A DNA stretch of 13,905 nt from an uncultured Lachnospiraceae bacterium (lineage in GTDB: Bacteria > Bacillota_A > Clostridia > Lachnospirales > Lachnospiraceae). How positions within the stretch are numbered: the first letter of the stretch is position 1; each line of letters begins with the position of its first letter. The notes below the pieces were generated by a model. It was not told where the DNA came from and ran no database searches. It was given only the letters and a program-made list of their open reading frames with translations. The DNA lies in assembly GCA_902773195.1 (NCBI GenBank), contig CACYDL010000256.1:1-13905 (forward strand), in the 5' to 3' direction. Below, piece by piece: positions 6,798 to 13,905 of the stretch. The translations under genes were made by a program, and so were the position numbers.

Positions 6798-7814
6798 ATG
6801 ACAAACAAACCGGCCCGCGTCACGCTCAGGGACATCTCGCGGGCATGCGGCTTTTCGGTCAATACAGTATCGCGCGCGCTCCGGGGGGATCTCCGTCTCT
6901 CCGAGGAGACAAGGAACCGCATCTGCGCCGCCGCGGAGGAGATGGGCTACATCCGGAACAGTCTGGCCTCCGGCCTCCGCTCCGGCAAAAGCCACGTCAT
7001 CGCGATCATCGTGGAGGAAATACAGAACCCCCACTACTCCAGCCTGCTGGGGGAGCTGGACCTTCTTCTCCGGAAGAACGGCTACATTCCCATGATCCTG
7101 TGCACGCACAACGACGCCGACCAGGAGGTGGCGATGCTCGAGCTGGCGGTCTCCCACTCCGTGGACGGGATCTTCCTTTTCCCGCTCAGCAGCGGCAGCC
7201 GGGCCGCCTCGCGGATCAAGTCCTCGCACCTGCCCCTCGTGCTGATCGACCGCGAGATCTCCGGCGTCCGGCTGGATCTCGTCCGCATCGACGACTACGA
7301 CGGCGGCCTTCAGGCCGGAAGGTATCTCATCGGCGCCGGTCACAGCCGCTTTCTCTATATCGGAGGCTCCGTCACGAACTCCTCCCATACCTACCGCTTC
7401 CAGGGCTTTAACGACGCCCTGAAGGAGGCCGGTTTTTCCGCGGACGACTGCCTGCGGGTCATCAGCCACCGCGACATCGAAAGCGATTTCGCGGGGCGTC
7501 TCCGCGAGCTGCTGCCCTCCGAGATCCGCGGCACCGGCATCTTCGCCTTCAACGACGAGCTCGCCTACTACACCGTCAACGAGCTTCTCACCCGGGGCGT
7601 GCGCATCCCGGAGGACGTGCACATCGTCGGCTTCGACGACATCCACCGGACGATCTCCTATCTGCCCGCCCTGACCACGATCGCCGGCATCCCCGGCGCC
7701 AGCATGGCCGGCTCCGCCGTGCGGCTCCTTCTGGAGCGCATCGCCGATCCGGAGCTTCCGGCCCGCGAGGAGATCATCCCGGTCGTTCTGCGGAACGCCG
7801 GAGAAGACAGGTAA
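6798..7814 (+). CDS. LacI/GalR-family transcriptional regulator
   Basis: This 338-residue repressor-type regulator has an N-terminal helix-turn-helix at about residues 8-30 (T-L-R-D-I-S-R-A-C-G-F-S-V-N-T-V-S-R-A-L). A hinge near 50-62 (N-S-L-A-S-G-L-R-S) follows, then a periplasmic-binding-protein-like sensor domain (64-330) with the family signatures I-I-V-E-E-I-Q-N-P-H-Y and I-V-G-F-D-D-I. An upstream open extension exists, but the protein family begins at this ATG, which has GAAGGACGGG and AAGGA just before it. It is divergent from the sugar operon and is probably its repressor, released by an arabinose-containing ligand. Its last nine codons and stop form the first unit of a 38-bp tandem array. 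The family call is secure; the ligand is inferred from context. Confidence 0.94.
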   Translation: MTNKPARVTLRDISRACGFSVNTVSRALRGDLRLSEETRNRICAAAEEMGYIRNSLASGLRSGKSHVIAIIVEEIQNPHYSSLLGELDLLLRKNGYIPMILCTHNDADQEVAMLELAVSHSVDGIFLFPLSSGSRAASRIKSSHLPLVLIDREISGVRLDLVRIDDYDGGLQAGRYLIGAGHSRFLYIGGSVTNSSHTYRFQGFNDALKEAGFSADDCLRVISHRDIESDFAGRLRELLPSEIRGTGIFAFNDELAYYTVNELLTRGVRIPEDVHIVGFDDIHRTISYLPALTTIAGIPGASMAGSAVRLLLERIADPELPAREEIIPVVLRNAGEDR

Positions 7815-7974
7815 AACCGGCTGTTCTGCGGGACGCCGGGGAAGACAGGCAAAAACACCCGTTCTGCGGGACGCCGGAGAAAGCAGATAACACCGGCTGT
7901 TCTGCGGGACGCCGGGGAAGGCAGACAAATACACCCGTTCTGCGGAACGCCGGAGAAGGCCGGTAAAACGGCCC
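7785..7974 (+). repeat. Five-unit 38-bp tandem array with 76-bp higher-order period
   Basis: Units start at 7785, 7823, 7861, 7899 and 7937, exactly 38 bp apart, and each begins with GTTCTGCGG. Odd units carry GCCGGAGAA and, in units 1 and 3, end CCGGCT. Even units carry GCCGGGGAA and end ACACCC. By eye unit 2 matches unit 4 at 35 of 38 and unit 1 matches unit 3 at 33 of 38, while units 1 and 2 share 31. The array starts in the LacI coding sequence and ends inside its terminator. Each unit can form GTTC-TGCG-G(G/A)AC in RNA. Confidence 0.95.
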
Positions 7975-7990: not shown

Positions 7991-8021
7991 ATAATTTCCC
8001 CAAATATTTTTATATTACCCC

Positions 8022-8050
8022 TTGACACACCTGTACGTCTGTGTTAATGT
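8022..8050 (+). promoter_or_regulatory. Predicted promoter of the GntR-ABC operon
   Basis: A perfect TTGACA (8022-8027) is followed after 17 bp by TAATGT (8045-8050), preceded by TG in the extended -10 position (8042-8043). The leader before the GntR ATG is about 135 nt and GC-rich. It includes a small hairpin, CCGGAG (8133-8138) with CTCCGG (8144-8149). Confidence 0.65.
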
Positions 8051-8076
8051 TCTATTGTATTAATCAGTTAACACAG
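8039..8076. promoter_or_regulatory. Inverted-repeat operator candidate for the GntR regulator
   Basis: CTGTGTTAA (8039-8047) and TTAACACAG (8068-8076) are perfect 9-bp inverted arms 20 bp apart. The left arm covers part of the -10 box and the right arm lies just past the expected start. Autorepression by the adjacent YtrA-like protein is the simplest reading, by analogy with other GntR autoregulators. Confidence 0.55.
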
Positions 8077-8190
8077 TGACACAACAGACACAGGCGGCTG
8101 TTCCGGCTGCCCGGACCGGCGGGGAACCGTCACCGGAGCGTCACTCCGGGCGTCCCCCGGGAACCGATCATTTTTCCGGCAGAGGTATGT

Positions 8191-8586
8191 ATGAAATGGC
8201 AGTTTAAACCGGGTATTCCCATATACCAGCAGATCATTTCGACGATCAAGGCCGGCATCGCCGCGGGCGATCTTCCGCCCGGCTCAAGAGTGCCTCCCGT
8301 CCGCGAGATGGCGATGGAGGCCGGGGTCAACCCGAACACGATGCAGCGCGCTTTTTCCGAGCTGGAGCGGGACGGCCTGCTCTACTCCGTCAGGACAAGC
8401 GGCCGTTACGTCACGGAAGATCCCGAGATCAGAAAGAAGCTCCGGCTCGAGATGAGCGGGGAGTGGATTGCCGAGCTGTGCGCGAAGCTGGCCGCCATCG
8501 GCATGAGCAGGGAGGACATTCTCGACGCGGTGTCGGAACAGATGAACGGAATGGAATCCACCGGACCAGAAAGGATAACAGTATGA
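8191..8586 (+). CDS. GntR-family regulator, YtrA subfamily
   Basis: This 131-residue DNA-binding protein consists of a winged helix-turn-helix at about residues 9-76 and a short alpha-helical tail. It has none of the larger ligand domains of FadR- or HutC-type relatives. P-I-Y-Q-Q-I, P-G-S-R-V-P-P-V-R-E-M-A, N-P-N-T-M-Q-R-A-F-S-E-L-E-R-D-G-L-L-Y and G-R-Y-V-T are the subfamily pattern. AGAGG (8181-8185) lies 5 nt before the ATG. Its TGA overlaps the ATG of the ABC ATPase gene (ATGA at 8583-8586), so regulator and transporter are coupled. YtrA-type proteins normally repress their own ABC operon and are relieved by cell-envelope stress or peptide antibiotics. Whether that inducer applies here is unknown. 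Confidence 0.93.
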   Translation: MKWQFKPGIPIYQQIISTIKAGIAAGDLPPGSRVPPVREMAMEAGVNPNTMQRAFSELERDGLLYSVRTSGRYVTEDPEIRKKLRLEMSGEWIAELCAKLAAIGMSREDILDAVSEQMNGMESTGPERITV

Positions 8587-9278
8587 CAATTCTCGAATGC
8601 AGCGGACTGACCAAGAGCTACGGCAGCCTCACGGCCCTCGACCACATAGACCTCTCCCTGGACGGAGGCCGGATCGTCGGACTTCTGGGGCCGAACGGAA
8701 GCGGCAAGACGACGCTGATCAAGCTGATCTGCCGGCTGCTCACCCCCACGGAGGGGCGCATCCTGATCAGCGGGTCGGAGCCGGGACCTGCTTCCAAGAA
8801 CATCATCTCCTATCTCCCGGACCGCAACTATCTCCCGGATTACATGAAGATGCCCGCGCTGCTCCGTCTCTTCGGCGACTTCTACGAAGATTTCGACAAA
8901 GAACGGGCCGAGCAGATGCTCGCCTCCCTTGAAATCGACCCCGATATGAGCATCCGCAAGATGTCCAAGGGCACCCGGGAGAAGGTCCAGCTCATTCTCA
9001 CCATGAGCCGCCGGGCGAAGTTCTACATCCTGGACGAGCCCATCGCCGGCGTGGACCCCGCGGCGCGGGACTACATCCTCCGCACCATCATCTCCAACTA
9101 CGAGCCGGACGCCCTCGTCCTCATCTCCACACACCTGATCGCGGACGTGGAATCCGTGCTGGACGAGGCGGTATTTCTGAAACACGGCAAGATTGTCCTG
9201 CACCGCCCCTGCGACGAGCTGCGGGAAGAGACCGGCATGAGTGTCGACGATTATTTCAGGGAGGTCTTCCGATGCTGA
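8583..9278 (+). CDS. ABC transporter ATP-binding protein, YtrB/BcrA-like
   Basis: This 231-residue ATPase should energise the membrane protein encoded next. Walker A is G-P-N-G-S-G-K-T (36-43), Walker B Y-I-L-D-E-P (148-153) with Glu152 as catalytic base, and the switch histidine is His184 (S-T-H). The signature is M-S-K-G-T-R-E-K (127-134) rather than LSGGQ, and the position usually held by the Q-loop glutamine reads Y-L-P-D (Asp80). Both variations are, as I recall, seen in the YtrB-like branch, so the protein is probably active. The frame is open further upstream, but homology starts at this ATG, which overlaps the GntR stop by 4 nt. Its own TGA overlaps the permease start by 7 nt. Export of a peptide, antibiotic or envelope component is the likely role. 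Confidence 0.94.
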   Translation: MTILECSGLTKSYGSLTALDHIDLSLDGGRIVGLLGPNGSGKTTLIKLICRLLTPTEGRILISGSEPGPASKNIISYLPDRNYLPDYMKMPALLRLFGDFYEDFDKERAEQMLASLEIDPDMSIRKMSKGTREKVQLILTMSRRAKFYILDEPIAGVDPAARDYILRTIISNYEPDALVLISTHLIADVESVLDEAVFLKHGKIVLHRPCDELREETGMSVDDYFREVFRC

Positions 9279-10087
9279 AAAAACTGCTTAAATACGAATT
9301 GCTCTCGGGCGGACGCGTCATGCTCCCGCTCTACGCGGCGGCTCTGGCGGCCTCCGTCCTGATGGCCCTGAATATCCGCATCCAGAGAAACGGCGCCGGA
9401 CTCGTCACCATCTGGGTCACGGCCCTCTTCGTCCTGTGCTTCACCGCGATGTCGGTCATGACGCTGTATATGATCCTGCGCCGGTTCTACCGGAACCTTC
9501 TGGGCGACGAGGGGTATATGATGTTCTCGCTGCCGGTCACCACCGGACAGCACATCGCGTCGAAGCTGATCGGCGCCTTCCTCTTCACCGCGGGCGCCGG
9601 CGTCGTGGCGGGGATCTCCGTCCTCCTGATCGTACTGGTGGCGCACCCCTCCGCGGACGGGATGCAGACGGTCCGGGAAATTTTCGCCAGGATCTGGACC
9701 GCCATGACGTCCGACAGCCGCCTGACCGCGGTTCTCACGATTCTTCTCATGATCGCCTCCGTCGTCCAGACGATCCTTGAGATCTACGCCGCCATCGCCA
9801 TCGGCCACCAGTGGAGCCAGCACCGGATTCTGGGGAGCATCCTGGCCTACGTCGGCATCAGCGTCGCGATGTCCGCCGTCACGAATCTGGCGGCGAGAGC
9901 CGGTTACACCCTGCTCAAAAACAACTCGATCTCCGTGATCATCAACTCCATCGACGACGTCTACAACGTGCTTCCCTCCTTCGCTCTCGAGGGAATCACC
10001 GCGGCCCTCGTCTTCACGCTGATCCGGTGCGTGCTCTACTGGTTCATCACCTGGAAGCTGCTGGACCGCCGGCTGAATCTGGAGTGA
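9272..10087 (+). CDS. ABC transporter membrane subunit (ABC-2 type, YtrC/D-like)
   Basis: This 271-residue integral membrane protein has about six hydrophobic segments, near residues 14-35, 45-68, 97-125, 149-174, 186-206 and 236-260. The cytoplasmic stretch after helix 2, with Y-R-N-L-L-G-D-E-G-Y-M-M-F-S-L-P-V-T, is a recognisable motif of permeases paired with YtrA/YtrB-like proteins. It probably works as a homodimer with two copies of the preceding ATPase, since no second permease is in this operon. The ATG lies inside the end of the ATPase gene (7-nt overlap) downstream of GGGAGG. A gap of about 300 bp with degenerate repeats follows. Export or envelope-stress defence is inferred from the regulator type, and the substrate is unknown. 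Confidence 0.9.
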   Translation: MLKKLLKYELLSGGRVMLPLYAAALAASVLMALNIRIQRNGAGLVTIWVTALFVLCFTAMSVMTLYMILRRFYRNLLGDEGYMMFSLPVTTGQHIASKLIGAFLFTAGAGVVAGISVLLIVLVAHPSADGMQTVREIFARIWTAMTSDSRLTAVLTILLMIASVVQTILEIYAAIAIGHQWSQHRILGSILAYVGISVAMSAVTNLAARAGYTLLKNNSISVIINSIDDVYNVLPSFALEGITAALVFTLIRCVLYWFITWKLLDRRLNLE

Positions 10088-10105
10088 CCGCCGGACATCC
10101 TCTCC

Positions 10106-10205
10106 GGAGCCGGATGACGAACACGTCGGAGAAGCGGAGCGGGATGACGCGGCGCGGCGGAGAAACGGAGCCGGACGACGCGGCGCGGAAAAACGCAGCC
10201 GGGTT
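10106..10205 (+). repeat. Degenerate tandem repeat of about 30 bp after the permease gene
   Basis: Copies begin near 10106, 10136, 10167 and 10195 (the last partial), each starting G(G/C)AGC(C/G)GG followed by a GA(T/C)GACG stretch in the first three. The second and third also share GACGCGGCGCGG. The period drifts between 28 and 31 bp. The array begins 18 nt past the stop codon. No function is visible. Confidence 0.7.
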
Positions 10206-10240
10206 CCGGCCTCCCGCAAATCAGCCCCGGAAACGAATTA

Positions 10241-10268
10241 TTACTATAAAAAGCAGCTCTTCTATGAT
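10241..10268 (+). promoter_or_regulatory. Weak promoter candidate for the second ABC locus
   Basis: An AT-rich island (about 10231-10275) in otherwise GC-rich DNA contains TATGAT (10263-10268), with TTACTA 16 bp upstream (10241-10246) as a poor -35. It would give a leader of about 115 nt before the ATPase gene. The -10 is plausible and the -35 is weak. Confidence 0.35.
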
Positions 10269-10297
10269 AAAATATTCCGGAAGCTTCTTCAGAAAGA

Positions 10298-10316
10298 GCC
10301 TCCTTTTTCCGGAGGC
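10298..10316 (+). other. Small leader hairpin
   Basis: GCCTCC (10298-10303) pairs perfectly with GGAGGC (10311-10316) around TTTTTCC. No T-run follows, so it is not a terminator. It sits upstream of the larger leader stem at 10335-10377. Confidence 0.45.
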
Positions 10317-10334
10317 GTGGTGACGCGGAAAGGC

Positions 10335-10377
10335 TCCGTCCGGTCTGTCTTTGAAGAGAGCGGATCAACCGGACGGA
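10335..10377 (+). promoter_or_regulatory. Leader hairpin abutting the Shine-Dalgarno site
   Basis: TCCGTCCGGT (10335-10344) and ACCGGACGGA (10368-10377) are perfect 10-bp inverted arms with a 23-nt loop. The last paired base is the first A of AAGGAG (10377-10382), the ribosome-binding site of the following ATPase. Stem formation may tune translation. Confidence 0.55.
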
Positions 10378-10393
10378 AGGAGATGAGGCATTG

Positions 10394-11101
10394 ATGCAGA
10401 CGTCAGAAAGGAACGGCCCCGCCGGGGCTCCGGCGGAGGACGGCTTCGCGGCGGAGCACATCTCCCAGCGGTACGGAAGGAAGACGGTCCTTCATGACTG
10501 CACCGTCCGCGCCGGAAGAGGGGAATGCGTCGGCGTGGCCGGGAGAAACGGATGCGGCAAAAGCACGCTGCTCTCCGTCCTGGCAGGCATCAGCCGCCCG
10601 GTATCCGGCAGCGTCACCTGTTTCGGAAGAAATCTTCTCGCCGGCAGAAAGGCCTTCGCCGAGCTGGTCGGCTACGTCCCGCAGACGAACCCTCTCCTGG
10701 AGGATCTCTCCGTCTGGGACAACCTCAGGCTTCTTTCGGGGAGAAATATCCCGAAGGACGACCGCTTCCTGAAGGCCCTGGAGCTCACGGACCTGCTGGG
10801 GACAAAGGTGTCCGCCCTCTCCGGAGGAATGAAGCGGCGCGCGGCGATCGCCTGCAGTCTCGCGGTCTCACCGCCGGTACTGGTCATGGATGAGCCCACC
10901 TCCGCGCTGGACCTCTATCACAAGTCCGTCATCTACGACACGCTGGACTCGTACAGGAGGTCGGGAGGCATTATCATCATGGCAACACACGACATCAGGG
11001 AAATGACATACTGCAACCGTCTTTATCTCATCAACCACGGTTCGGCCAGCGAGACTGATCCCGAATCGGCAATTAAAATCATCAAAGGAGGATCATCATG
11101 A
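10394..11101 (+). CDS. ABC transporter ATP-binding protein of the second export locus
   Basis: This 235-residue ATPase has a canonical set of motifs: Walker A G-R-N-G-C-G-K-S-T (50-58), Q-loop Gln97 (Y-V-P-Q), signature L-S-G-G-M (142-146), Walker B V-M-D-E-P (164-168) and switch His199 (A-T-H-D). The first 18 or so residues are a poorly conserved extension. AAGGAG (10377-10382) is 11 nt before this ATG. A TTG directly before it (10391) would be at a better 8-nt spacing and adds one residue, so either may start. The C-terminus is short, with no accessory regulatory domain. Its TGA overlaps the ATG of the secreted protein. The ABC-2 permease at 12555 is the obvious membrane partner, so this is probably an exporter; the substrate is unknown. 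Confidence 0.93.
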   Translation: MQTSERNGPAGAPAEDGFAAEHISQRYGRKTVLHDCTVRAGRGECVGVAGRNGCGKSTLLSVLAGISRPVSGSVTCFGRNLLAGRKAFAELVGYVPQTNPLLEDLSVWDNLRLLSGRNIPKDDRFLKALELTDLLGTKVSALSGGMKRRAAIACSLAVSPPVLVMDEPTSALDLYHKSVIYDTLDSYRRSGGIIIMATHDIREMTYCNRLYLINHGSASETDPESAIKIIKGGSS

Positions 11102-12486
11102 AACGTAAATGGCTCAACACCATGTGCGCCGCTTTCACGGCCGCTGCCCTCACCGTCTCTTTCGCGCCGGCGATGGCCGCCGCGGATGACGCGCAGTCCG
11201 TCCCCGAAATCATGGCAGACGCCGGTCTCGAAGAACTCGCCCTCGGCGGCTCCATGACGGCGGAGATCAAGGTCACCGGCAGCATCGAAAACGGTGAATC
11301 CAGCATGCCCATCGAGGCGTCCGTCACGGCGGTCAGCGACCAGGACGCCGGAGCGAATTCCGTACAGGGCGCCGTGTCCGCGTCCGGAATCAACGTCTCC
11401 TTCGCCGAATACATGGACGCCGAGAAGGTGGTGCTCCAGATCCCCGGCCTCCCGTCCGCGATCTCCTATAACTACGTCACGGATCCGGCCGGAACAAACC
11501 TCGCCAAGGTCGTCGGGACCCAGATGCCCGAATACATCAACCACGTTCTCCAGCTGTTCTACGCCACGGCCTATCAGAACGAGGCATTCATGCAGTACGC
11601 CGAGGAACTCGGCCAGGTGCTCCAGGAGATCGCCGGCAGCGTGTCCTTCACCCAGGCGGAGCCCAAGGACTTCACCATCGGCGGCGCCGCCGTGTCCTGC
11701 CCCGGCTCCACGACCACGATCACCAAGGAATTTGCCCTTGACACCGTCAACAAGGTTCTCGGCGTCAGGATGCCGAACGGACAGACCTTCCTTGAGTACT
11801 ACGACATGGTTCTGAACTTCGCCAACAACATGAACGGCTCGGCCGAAAAGGTCGACATCCCGGCTCAGCTCGAGGAGTTCTTCAGCGATATGCCCGACAT
11901 GAATCTGACGGTCTACACCAGGTCCGACCTGGAAGGATCCTCGTTCGACGGAGCGCCCGCTGCCATCGAGCTTGAAGCAGAAGGCCAGAATCTCTCCCTG
12001 AGATTCCTCGGCAGCCCGATCCCGTTCACGGAAGTGCGCGCCTTCGCCAACGATGTGGAGCAGTTCTCCGCCGTCACCGAAGTGTCGGAGAACGGCGTCG
12101 ACGTCGTGATCTCCCAGGAAGGCGAGGTCGTCGGCTCGGTCAACGTCACGGGCGTCCAGCCCAACTTCGTCATCTCCGCCAAGGTCGGCGACAGCATGAA
12201 CGTCGGGACGCTGACGGTCAACACCGAGACGGGCGTGTTCACCCTCTCCTCTCCGTATCTTCCCTCTGACGCCACCGGCCAGTTCTCGCTGGATGAAAAC
12301 GGCCTGAACCTCACGGCGTCCTGCATGGGCTTCAACGCCGAGTGCCGCTTCAGCAAGGGCGGAACCGTCACGCCGATCGAAGGCAATGTCGTCGAGATCA
12401 CGGAGATGGCCGAAGAGGACCTTCAGGCCCTTCTCTCCTCCGTCGGCTCCATGGCCTCCGGCACGGGCCTCGCTCCCGCCGCGTAA
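11098..12486 (+). CDS. Unrecognised secreted protein between ABC ATPase and permease genes
   Basis: I do not recognise this 462-residue protein. Residues 1-29 are a Sec signal peptide (M-K-R-K, hydrophobic 9-23, then A-M-A-A-A before D30). There is no lipobox, no transmembrane segment after the signal and no LPXTG anchor. The mature part is acidic, low in cysteine and apparently all-beta with a helical middle (about 155-185). Alternating strands such as M-T-A-E-I-K-V-T-G-S-I and T-L-T-V-N-T-E-T-G-V-F-T-L suggest two open beta-sheet domains, loosely like LolA/LppX-type lipid-binding folds; that likeness is speculation. It starts inside the ATPase stop (4-nt ATGA overlap) with AAAGGAGG upstream, so it is made with the ATPase. 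It ends in a strong terminator. A role as extracellular partner or cargo of the transporter is inferred from position. Confidence 0.85.
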   Translation: MKRKWLNTMCAAFTAAALTVSFAPAMAAADDAQSVPEIMADAGLEELALGGSMTAEIKVTGSIENGESSMPIEASVTAVSDQDAGANSVQGAVSASGINVSFAEYMDAEKVVLQIPGLPSAISYNYVTDPAGTNLAKVVGTQMPEYINHVLQLFYATAYQNEAFMQYAEELGQVLQEIAGSVSFTQAEPKDFTIGGAAVSCPGSTTTITKEFALDTVNKVLGVRMPNGQTFLEYYDMVLNFANNMNGSAEKVDIPAQLEEFFSDMPDMNLTVYTRSDLEGSSFDGAPAAIELEAEGQNLSLRFLGSPIPFTEVRAFANDVEQFSAVTEVSENGVDVVISQEGEVVGSVNVTGVQPNFVISAKVGDSMNVGTLTVNTETGVFTLSSPYLPSDATGQFSLDENGLNLTASCMGFNAECRFSKGGTVTPIEGNVVEITEMAEEDLQALLSSVGSMASGTGLAPAA

Positions 12487-12507
12487 ACCAACCTACACAG
12501 TTTTTCC

Positions 12508-12540
12508 GGATGCAGGGCGTCGGTCCTGCATCCTTTTTTT
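12508..12540 (+). terminator. Rho-independent terminator inside the second ABC locus
   Basis: GGATGCAGG (12508-12516) and CCTGCATCC (12525-12533) form a perfect 9-bp stem with an 8-nt loop, followed by seven T (12534-12540). The Shine-Dalgarno site of the permease gene starts 2 nt later, so readthrough past this point sets permease expression unless a hidden promoter exists. Confidence 0.92.
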
Positions 12541-12554
12541 CAGAGGACCTTTTC

Positions 12555-13905
12555 ATGAAACGATTCCCGATCTGCCTGAAGCTCAAGCTCAAAAAGGGAC
12601 TGAAGCTGATCCCGTCCTTCCTGCTCAGCATTCTGATCACCGCGGCAGCGGCGGCCCTGGCCGCCGCCGTCTTCAGCGCCGTCATGGGCGAGCGGAGCAT
12701 TCTCCCCAAAGCCGTCGTCGCCATCGTCGCCGGCAGCGACGGCACCGACGACACGGTGGAGACGGGCGGCATGCCGGACTTCAAGACCATGATGATGATC
12801 GGCGTCGTCGAAGGCATGGACAGCATCCGGAGCGTCTGCAGCTTCTCCTACATGAGCCCCCGGCAGGCCGCGGACGCCCTCGCCGACGGGAGCGTGAGCG
12901 CGGCCGTCTATCTCCCCGACGGGATCTACGAGGACATCGACAGCGGCGAAAACACGCCCGTCAAGGTCCGGCTCGCCGGGGACGGCACAGGACTCCTCTC
13001 GGGACTCTTCCGGGCCCTGACGGAATCCGGTGTGACGCTGATCCGCGCGGTGGAGTCCTCGATCTACGCGATGGACATTCTGAGCGGGACGTATACCCTG
13101 ACCGCGGACCTGCCCGTTCTGGAGGACGCCGTCTTCAACACCTACATAAACGGCGCTCTTTCGAGAAACGCCCTGTGGAACCCGGAGAACGTCTCACAGC
13201 GCTCCGGCCTCTCCCTCCGGGACTTCATCGTCACGAGCGCGGCGCTGCTCCTGCTGCTTCTGTTCGGCATCGGATTCCGGGCGTTCTACACCCGGGACGA
13301 GAAGGATTCCGCGGCGGTCCTGGCGCGCCAGGGCCTGCCCCGTCCCGCCGTCTCGGCGGCTGTGGTCCTCTCCTCCACGGTCGTCTTCGCGATCCTGGCC
13401 GCGCTCCTGGCCGCGGCGGTCCGCCTGACGCTCCGCGCGGTCTTTCCGGGGGAATACGCCCTGCCCTCTCCCGCGGAGGCGCTGCTTCTGCTCCCCGCGA
13501 TCGCCGCTCTATCCTTCAGCGCCGCCGCTTACGCGCACTTTCTCTACTCGGCGGTGCCGGAGAAGGGCTCCGGTCTTTTCTATCTTCTGATCACGGTCCT
13601 TCTGTACGCGGCCTGCGGCGGACTTCTGCCCGCGGCCTATCTCCCGGGCGTTCTGCGGCAGGCGGCCCTTCACTCGCCGGTGGCGGCGTGGCAGGCAGCC
13701 CTGTCGGCCGTCCTGTTCGGCGGCGGCGCGGCCGCCGCGGTCCCCGCTGCCCTGTGGGGAGCGGTTCTTCTGGCGGCCGCCCTCGCGGGCCGGCGTCTGA
13801 CCGGCCGGGAACGGACGGCGGGGCTTTCCGACGGTAGTCCGGCCGCCCGGCCGGCTTCCGGCGCCGGGTCAGACCGGCCGGGTTCCGCCTGCACGGGGCC
13901 AGACC
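12555..13905 (+). CDS. ABC-2 type permease with large extracellular domain, 3' end cut by window
   Basis: The frame is open for 450 codons to the window edge. AGAGGA (12542-12547) lies 7 nt before the ATG. Residues 19-43 form one hydrophobic helix. A soluble, probably extracellular domain follows (about 44-220). Five more hydrophobic segments then lie near 223-241, 257-285, 302-325, 334-356 and 390-415. This one-helix, big loop, five-helix layout, with G-G-L-L-P-A-A-Y-L-P and later H-S-P-V-A-A-W, fits ABC-2 permeases of the YhgE/Pip-like kind. The last 30 visible residues are a Gly/Pro/Ser-rich tail. It is the likely membrane half of the ATPase at 10394, separated from it by the secreted-protein gene and a terminator. 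An overlapping open frame is Arg/Pro-rich and implausible. The ABC-2 call is good; the substrate is unknown. Confidence 0.83.
   Translation, partial: MKRFPICLKLKLKKGLKLIPSFLLSILITAAAAALAAAVFSAVMGERSILPKAVVAIVAGSDGTDDTVETGGMPDFKTMMMIGVVEGMDSIRSVCSFSYMSPRQAADALADGSVSAAVYLPDGIYEDIDSGENTPVKVRLAGDGTGLLSGLFRALTESGVTLIRAVESSIYAMDILSGTYTLTADLPVLEDAVFNTYINGALSRNALWNPENVSQRSGLSLRDFIVTSAALLLLLLFGIGFRAFYTRDEKDSAAVLARQGLPRPAVSAAVVLSSTVVFAILAALLAAAVRLTLRAVFPGEYALPSPAEALLLLPAIAALSFSAAAYAHFLYSAVPEKGSGLFYLLITVLLYAACGGLLPAAYLPGVLRQAALHSPVAAWQAALSAVLFGGGAAAAVPAALWGAVLLAAALAGRRLTGRERTAGLSDGSPAARPASGAGSDRPGSACTGPD

What the first reader, a model, noticed from the sequence alone, without database searches (positions are those of the whole stretch)
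10394..13905. ATPase / orphan secreted protein / ABC-2 permease cassette
A 462-residue Sec-exported protein with no recognisable domain starts inside the ATPase stop codon and precedes an ABC-2 permease that has its own large extracellular domain. Tight coupling suggests that the secreted protein is a working partner (extracellular chaperone, cargo or immunity factor) and not a passenger. I know of no described system with this exact layout. It is the best candidate here for an undescribed system.
Basis: partly seen in the sequence, partly recalled or inferred. Interest (0 to 1): 0.72.

Follow-up and report, generated by a model that had tools for sequence, protein, structure and literature searches.

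The report
ABC exporter with dedicated secreted partner
A bacterium encodes a membrane pump together with an exported helper protein of unknown kind, and many related bacteria keep a helper gene of this family beside the same pump genes, so the helper is probably a working part of the pump.

Summary
ATPase 10394-11101, 462-aa exported protein (SECR) 11098-12486 with ATGA overlap, and an ABC-2 permease from 12555, cut by the window end, are real. SECR matches no Pfam family, yet it is not an orphan. Profile searches found members in 49 genomes; in 38 of them the gene lies beside the same exporter genes. From the permease side, 18 of 31 exporter loci carry an adjacent SECR gene. The usual cassette is ATPase, SECR, permease 1, permease 2. 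Most relatives look membrane-anchored; the window's signal-peptide clade nests inside them, so the secreted form looks derived. Profile comparison links SECR remotely to DUF6612, and DUF6612 to LolA_like; SECR and LolA_like show no direct similarity, and the fold is unresolved. Best reading: accessory extracytoplasmic subunit of an uncharacterised ABC exporter, perhaps a carrier of hydrophobic cargo. Against it: 13 of 31 exporter loci lack an adjacent SECR gene, 11 of 49 SECR genes stand alone, and in this window a terminator-like hairpin separates SECR from the permease. Substrate and contact are untested.

The parts
10394..11101 (+). ABC ATPase, 235 aa, catalytic motifs intact; too short for an added C-terminal regulatory domain (inference from length)
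11084..11091 (+). AAAGGAGG, likely ribosome-binding site of SECR, inside the ATPase gene
11098..12486 (+). SECR, 462-aa Sec-exported protein; start overlaps the ATPase stop (ATGA 11098-11101)
11098..11178 (+). likely signal peptide, residues 1-27 (A-M-A site), read from hydropathy and motif
12508..12540 (+). terminator-like hairpin (11 pairs, loop 4) and T7 between SECR and permease
12555..13905 (+). ABC-2 permease (PF12698), first 450 aa, cut by the window end; probably first half of a fused two-permease protein (inference from L001)
12675..13220 (+). extracellular domain of the permease, residues about 41-222, by hydropathy

Best explanation
SECR is an accessory extracytoplasmic subunit of an uncharacterised ABC-2 type exporter. 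Shown by sequence: an ATPase with intact motifs, permease halves with a large extracellular domain, and a SECR-family gene that stays with them through changes of gene order. Inferred: the ATPase drives two permease halves whose outer domains hand a substrate to, or are controlled by, the SECR domain. In most relatives SECR looks like a single-pass membrane protein; in the window's clade the anchor is replaced by a cleavable signal peptide, so the domain works as a soluble protein outside the membrane. More tentative: because SECR is remotely related to DUF6612, which in turn resembles LolA_like lipoproteins, it may shield or carry a hydrophobic or amphipathic cargo.
For: SECR-first survey: adjacency in 38 of 49 genomes. 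Gene order varies: of 49 loci with SECR beside exporter genes (window and permease-first loci included), SECR lies after the ATPase and before a permease in 33, after the ATPase at a contig end in 2, before the ATPase in 7, before the permeases with the ATPase last in 3, and before permeases with no ATPase in view in 4. Permease-first survey: 18 of 31 loci. Tree distances of 40 loci: SECR-permease r 0.77, SECR-ATPase 0.67, permease-ATPase 0.79, each with 0 of 2000 permutations reaching it; the eight signal-peptide members included form one clade in both the SECR and permease trees. SECR profile (40 rows) against DUF6612 (23 rows): hhalign probability 86-88, score 50 against at most 15.4 in 60 column shuffles and 18.4 reversed. 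DUF6612 against LolA_like (25 rows): 76-80 locally, reversed 0.1-0.2.
Against: 13 of 31 exporter loci have no adjacent SECR gene; of these 13 genomes 7 have a member elsewhere at E<1e-5, 2 only borderline matches, 4 none. In 11 of 49 SECR-first genomes SECR is not beside the exporter, 3 of them at contig ends. Tree agreement is not corrected for species descent. SECR against LolA_like directly: 0.1-0.3; DUF6612 against LolA_like in global mode only 26 and 0.2. Smaller SECR alignments give weak DUF6612 scores (18.6 and 1.1) and the signal-peptide clade alone 4.1. No confident structure (pLDDT 50.2 and 55.4). The hairpin before the permease argues against equal expression. Substrate and physical contact were not tested.
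Confidence: 0.66

Rival explanations
1. SECR is a sensor or regulator of the exporter: anchored forms pass an extracellular signal through the cytosolic tail or zinc ribbon to the ATPase or to expression, and the soluble form is a ligand-binding remnant.
For: Tails with FDPMTG-like repeats (13 of 68 rows) or zinc ribbons (9 of 68 rows); some members stand alone, one beside a kinase-like gene (L084, by eye).
Against: The window's clade has lost tail and anchor, yet the gene stays beside exporter genes in 11 of 11 cases; I saw no recurring kinase or regulator gene in the neighbourhoods read by eye.
Confidence: 0.15
2. SECR is a substrate-binding protein and the system imports or clears something from outside.
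For: Extracytoplasmic protein encoded with ATPase and permease, as in binding-protein cassettes.
Against: The permease matches PF12698, a family I know as exporter-type (recalled); no binding-protein family matched SECR, the 12 members of A2 or 10 further members.
Confidence: 0.06
3. SECR is the cargo of the exporter, or an immunity factor for an exported toxin.
For: Soluble secreted form in the window's clade; ATPase-SECR overlap.
Against: It carries its own Sec signal; most relatives look membrane-anchored, unlike a released cargo; no recurring precursor or toxin gene seen by eye (listing cut), where ORFs under 60-130 aa were not shown.
Confidence: 0.07
4. Passive linkage: neighbours inherited together without a functional tie.
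For: Tree agreement may reflect species descent; lone SECR genes and partner-free exporters exist; close relatives share other neighbours too (L001 and L029, L037 and L038, L031 and L035; by eye).
Against: Across lineages the flanking genes change while these genes stay together in several orders.
Confidence: 0.06

Closest known systems
Type V/VI hybrid exporters of Bacillus subtilis (LnrLMN, YhaQP, NatAB), PMC11466899
   Same: Type V-like membrane part with large extracellular domains; NatAB likewise lacks a regulatory domain on the ATPase (section 12 read, other passages by find)
   Different: The passages I saw describe no extracytoplasmic partner gene for them; here one recurs. The window permease's fold was not predicted
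LptB2FG with LptC
   Same: Two permeases with outer domains plus a partner with one membrane helix; that helix can be replaced by unrelated ones (PMC6286764, passages seen by find)
   Different: Not compared by sequence here beyond the Pfam scan; lipopolysaccharide bridge of two-membrane bacteria; SECR fold not established; in the window's clade the anchor is lost
DUF6612 (PF20316)
   Same: Collinear remote profile similarity (hhalign 86-88)
   Different: SECR members scanned do not reach PF20316; SECR is longer and has a conserved cysteine motif; surroundings of the DUF6612 genes were not examined
LolA/LppX-like carriers (PF03548, PF17131, PF07161)
   Same: Linked only through DUF6612 (76-80 over 49 columns)
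   Different: No Pfam match of SECR and hhalign 0.1-0.3 against LolA_like

Membership tests
ABC transporter ATPase (PF00005) | match above cut-off and catalytic motifs | tested here: met
   102.3 bits against 25; motifs
ABC2_membrane_3 permease (PF12698) | match above cut-off | tested here: met
   49.1 bits against 31.6
Type V/VI hybrid exporter (LnrLMN/NatAB kind) | large extracellular domain between TM1 and TM2 | tested here: met
   hydropathy only: window residues 41-222, both halves of L001 and L037, permease 1 of L031; permease 2 of L031 has one weak extra segment in the gap
Type V/VI hybrid exporter (LnrLMN/NatAB kind) | type V membrane fold with domain-swapped extracellular domains | not tested
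   no permease structure was predicted
DUF6612 (PF20316) | match above the Pfam gathering score | tested here: not met
   no PF20316 match for the window protein, the 12 members of A2 or 10 further members; remote profile similarity only
LolA / LolA_like / LppX | sequence-profile match | tested here: not met
   no Pfam match; hhalign against LolA_like 0.1-0.3
LolA / LolA_like / LppX | half-barrel fold | tested here: inconclusive
LptB2FG-LptC | single-pass partner with beta-jellyroll outer domain | tested here: inconclusive
   single hydrophobic segment in most relatives; fold not established
Bacteriocin export or immunity cassette | precursor peptide or toxin gene in the cluster | tested here: inconclusive
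   none seen by eye; short ORFs were not listed and many loci were not read

The most novel reading that the evidence does not exclude
A family-wide export machine of Lachnospiraceae-like bacteria in which an undescribed, LolA-superfamily-like domain is the dedicated extracytoplasmic carrier of an ABC-2 exporter: a one-membrane counterpart of LptB2FG-LptC or LolCDE-LolA, with one clade that has freed the carrier from the membrane as a diffusible secreted protein.
Probability: 0.27. Interest if true: 0.78.

Novelty: new variant of a known kind. Interest (0 to 1): 0.55.

Why it matters
It turns a protein without a family into a defined component of a recurrent export cassette: 31 exporter loci of this kind were confirmed among 150 genomes drawn from the family of L001's genome, 18 of them with the partner beside them. 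If the carrier reading holds, it would be a dedicated outside partner of an exporter in one-membrane bacteria. The natural series of anchored, lipoprotein-like and secreted forms makes the role of the anchor directly testable.

Tried and rejected

Rows dropped before counts; 10 genomes with E 0.0036-0.096; three of these places were fetched (G078, G156, G249; no member found), seven were not; all 44 genomes were looked at, but the second matches G044:C60 (E 3.6e-16) and G521:C141 (7e-5) were not fetched; 5 genomes were judged not members (G440 is DUF6612; G485, G539, G552 and G059 matched only leader-like or short stretches and stayed under my 25-bit line, G059 at 17 bits). L166-L170 are another permease pair without this ATPase; G096, G140 and four second rows were not fetched; L164 and L165 are kept although their permease scores are low (68 and 38); most of the weaker second matches were not fetched. 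One search used 25 of the 30 LolA_like loci. One search used 40 loci that had all three genes long enough.
Full report
What is there. The window carries on the + strand an ABC ATPase (10394-11101), a 462-aa exported protein (SECR, 11098-12486) whose start overlaps the ATPase stop, and an ABC-2 permease from 12555 that runs off the window end. The ATPase matches PF00005 and has the catalytic motifs; the permease matches PF12698. SECR has no Pfam family. Between SECR and the permease lie 68 nt with an 11-pair hairpin followed by T7; the scan found 12 terminator-like sites in 8000-13905 where shuffles give 3.8. In relatives this gap holds a strong hairpin in L030 and L034, only diffuse folds in L029 and L037, and nothing of note in the short gaps of L001, L031, L032, L035, L038, L039 and L040, so the hairpin is not conserved. 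No genome is held for the window and its organism was not identified.

First relatives. P0002 is 39% identical. A second scan found L001, from a record titled uncultured Lachnospiraceae bacterium RUG11868, with ATPase, SECR and permease in the same order; its permease has 831 aa and carries both halves. Its genome is G001. Kinship of G-handle genomes is not told, so 'family' below means the family of G001 as the tool defines it.

SECR-first survey. A two-row profile in 295 relatives of G001 matched 22 genomes at E<=0.1, 12 of them at E<=1e-5. A 12-row profile in 397 genomes of the family matched 44 at E<=1e-3, two of them (G001, G044) seen before. I fetched surroundings of all 12 and of the 42 new ones and scored ORFs with profiles of SECR, both permeases and the ATPase. 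Five of these 54 genomes hold no family member on inspection. Of the other 49, 38 have SECR beside ATPase and/or permease genes. In G032, L086 and L092 the contig ends hide part of the cassette, in G025 the gene is split over two contigs, and in L039 no such ATPase lies in the 15 kb fetched. In L100 and L107 the fused permease is diverged. The 11 others are G392, G487, G102, G416, G138, G549, G389, G444, G171, G048 and G317; G487, G389 and G048 sit at contig ends. Six of the 11 have an exporter locus of this kind elsewhere (G392, G487, G549, G138, G102, G171); G416 and G389 have no permease match, the match in G444 is the other permease pair by its surroundings, and G048 and G317 were not searched for it. 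All ten genomes of the window's signal-peptide clade are among the 38; with the window 11 of 11.

Permease-first survey. A permease-1 profile in 150 genomes of the family matched 38 at E<=1e-8. Nine were cassettes with SECR already seen. Of 27 further loci, five (L166-L170) are another permease pair. Of the remaining 22, seven have a SECR gene by my profile and two more (L153, L161) by A6: 18 of 31 in all. In the 13 genomes without an adjacent gene a member lies elsewhere at E<1e-5 in 7 (G058, G138, G136, G112, G082, G102, G171), two have borderline matches (G084, G054) and four none (G059, G111, G083, G046); the elsewhere genes that I fetched are not beside exporter genes. In L197 the slot before a fused permease holds a 523-aa gene with FDPMTG repeats that my profiles miss. 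So the exporter can lack an adjacent partner, and the partner domain also occurs alone.

Gene order in the 71 loci scanned. SECR after the ATPase and before a permease 33; after the ATPase at a contig end 2; before the ATPase 7; before the permeases with the ATPase last 3; before permeases with no ATPase in view 4; exporter without SECR 13; SECR alone 9. Neighbourhoods read by eye (window, L001, L029-L038, the lone loci, L144-L170 with the listing cut, L195-L206) show housekeeping-like genes that change between lineages; close relatives share some, such as L001 with L029, L031 with L035 and L037 with L038. Wider neighbours of L073-L107 with a cassette were not read.

Form of the partner. The 11 leader sequences of the window's clade have a hydrophobic stretch followed by an A-x-A site, with peak hydropathy 1.56-2.09. 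Most other members have a stronger segment, mostly above 2.3, usually after a cytosolic tail; a few overlap in value (L094, L098, L104). Of 68 rows 13 carry FDPMTG-like repeats and 9 a zinc ribbon. L091, L093, L155 and L161 look like lipoproteins by eye. In trees of 40 loci the eight signal-peptide members included form one clade inside the others, for SECR and for the permease; distances correlate (r 0.77, 0 of 2000 permutations), not corrected for species descent. The secreted form is most simply derived.

Remote relatives. Weak hits of the SECR profiles included DUF6612 proteins. I collected DUF6612 members (23 of 149 genomes). SECR (40 rows) against DUF6612 (23 rows) gave hhalign 86.4, the other way 88.5, and a global alignment through the whole DUF6612 profile. 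Controls: at most 15.4 in 60 column shuffles and 18.4 reversed, against 50; six random halves gave 45-89; anchored members alone 79, signal-peptide clade alone 4. Smaller alignments gave 18.6 and 1.1. DUF6612 against LolA_like gave 76-80 over 49 columns, 26 and 0.2 in global mode; SECR against LolA_like 0.1-0.3. One DUF6612 member matched LolA_like in Pfam at E 0.003 and one LppX at 0.029. These pairwise values are not calibrated by a database search. I take the DUF6612 link as likely and the LolA link as a hypothesis. Structure models were too poor to decide.

Mechanism. Shown: ATPase with intact motifs, permease halves with outer domains, an exported or anchored partner that recurs with them. 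Inferred: SECR acts at the outer face with the permease domains. Hypothesis: it carries or shields a hydrophobic cargo, as LptC does for lipopolysaccharide; the LptC helix can be replaced by unrelated ones (PMC6286764, passages by find), so a changed anchor need not end such a function. The core resembles the hybrid type V/VI exporters of Bacillus subtilis (PMC11466899, section 12 read, other passages by find).

Verdict. A real, recurrent exporter cassette with an accessory extracytoplasmic protein of an unnamed family; a new variant of a known kind. The layout with a clearly signal-peptide-bearing partner is confined, in what I searched, to one clade. Prior description was sought only in the held open-access library.

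Noticed in passing
window 12478-12483 and C-termini of relatives: In the signal-peptide clade 9 of 10 complete C-termini end in Ala-Ala (window, L001, L029, L030, L031, L032, L034, L035, L038; not L037); no other row listed does. Could be composition or a C-terminal recognition signal.
   Followed up: partly
window SECR residue 201; permease residue 95: A cysteine in SECR (50 of 58 rows) and one in the permease outer domain (37 of 63) are conserved. SECR with Cys: permease with 29, without 12; SECR without: 0 and 6; no adjacent SECR: 8 and 8. L029, L034, L037 and L038 of the window's clade lack the permease cysteine, and shared descent is not corrected for, so a linking disulfide is only a weak lead.
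   Followed up: partly
L085, L074, L081, L040, L090 and others: Cytosolic tails made of FDPMTGxP-like repeats, function unknown; the one paper holding that letter string concerns HLA epitopes (listing only).
   Followed up: partly
window 8191-10087: A separate GntR regulator, ATPase and permease-like gene upstream; best NCBIfam matches PmtR and PmtA, far below cut-offs.
   Followed up: no
window 7784-7969 and 10105-10188: Two arrays of GC-rich tandem repeats, periods 38/76 and 31; the first begins inside the end of the LacI-like ORF.
   Followed up: no
L166-L170 and L198: A different recurring pair of ABC-2-like permeases without this ATPase, in recurring surroundings that include rhomboid-like genes (by eye).
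   Followed up: no
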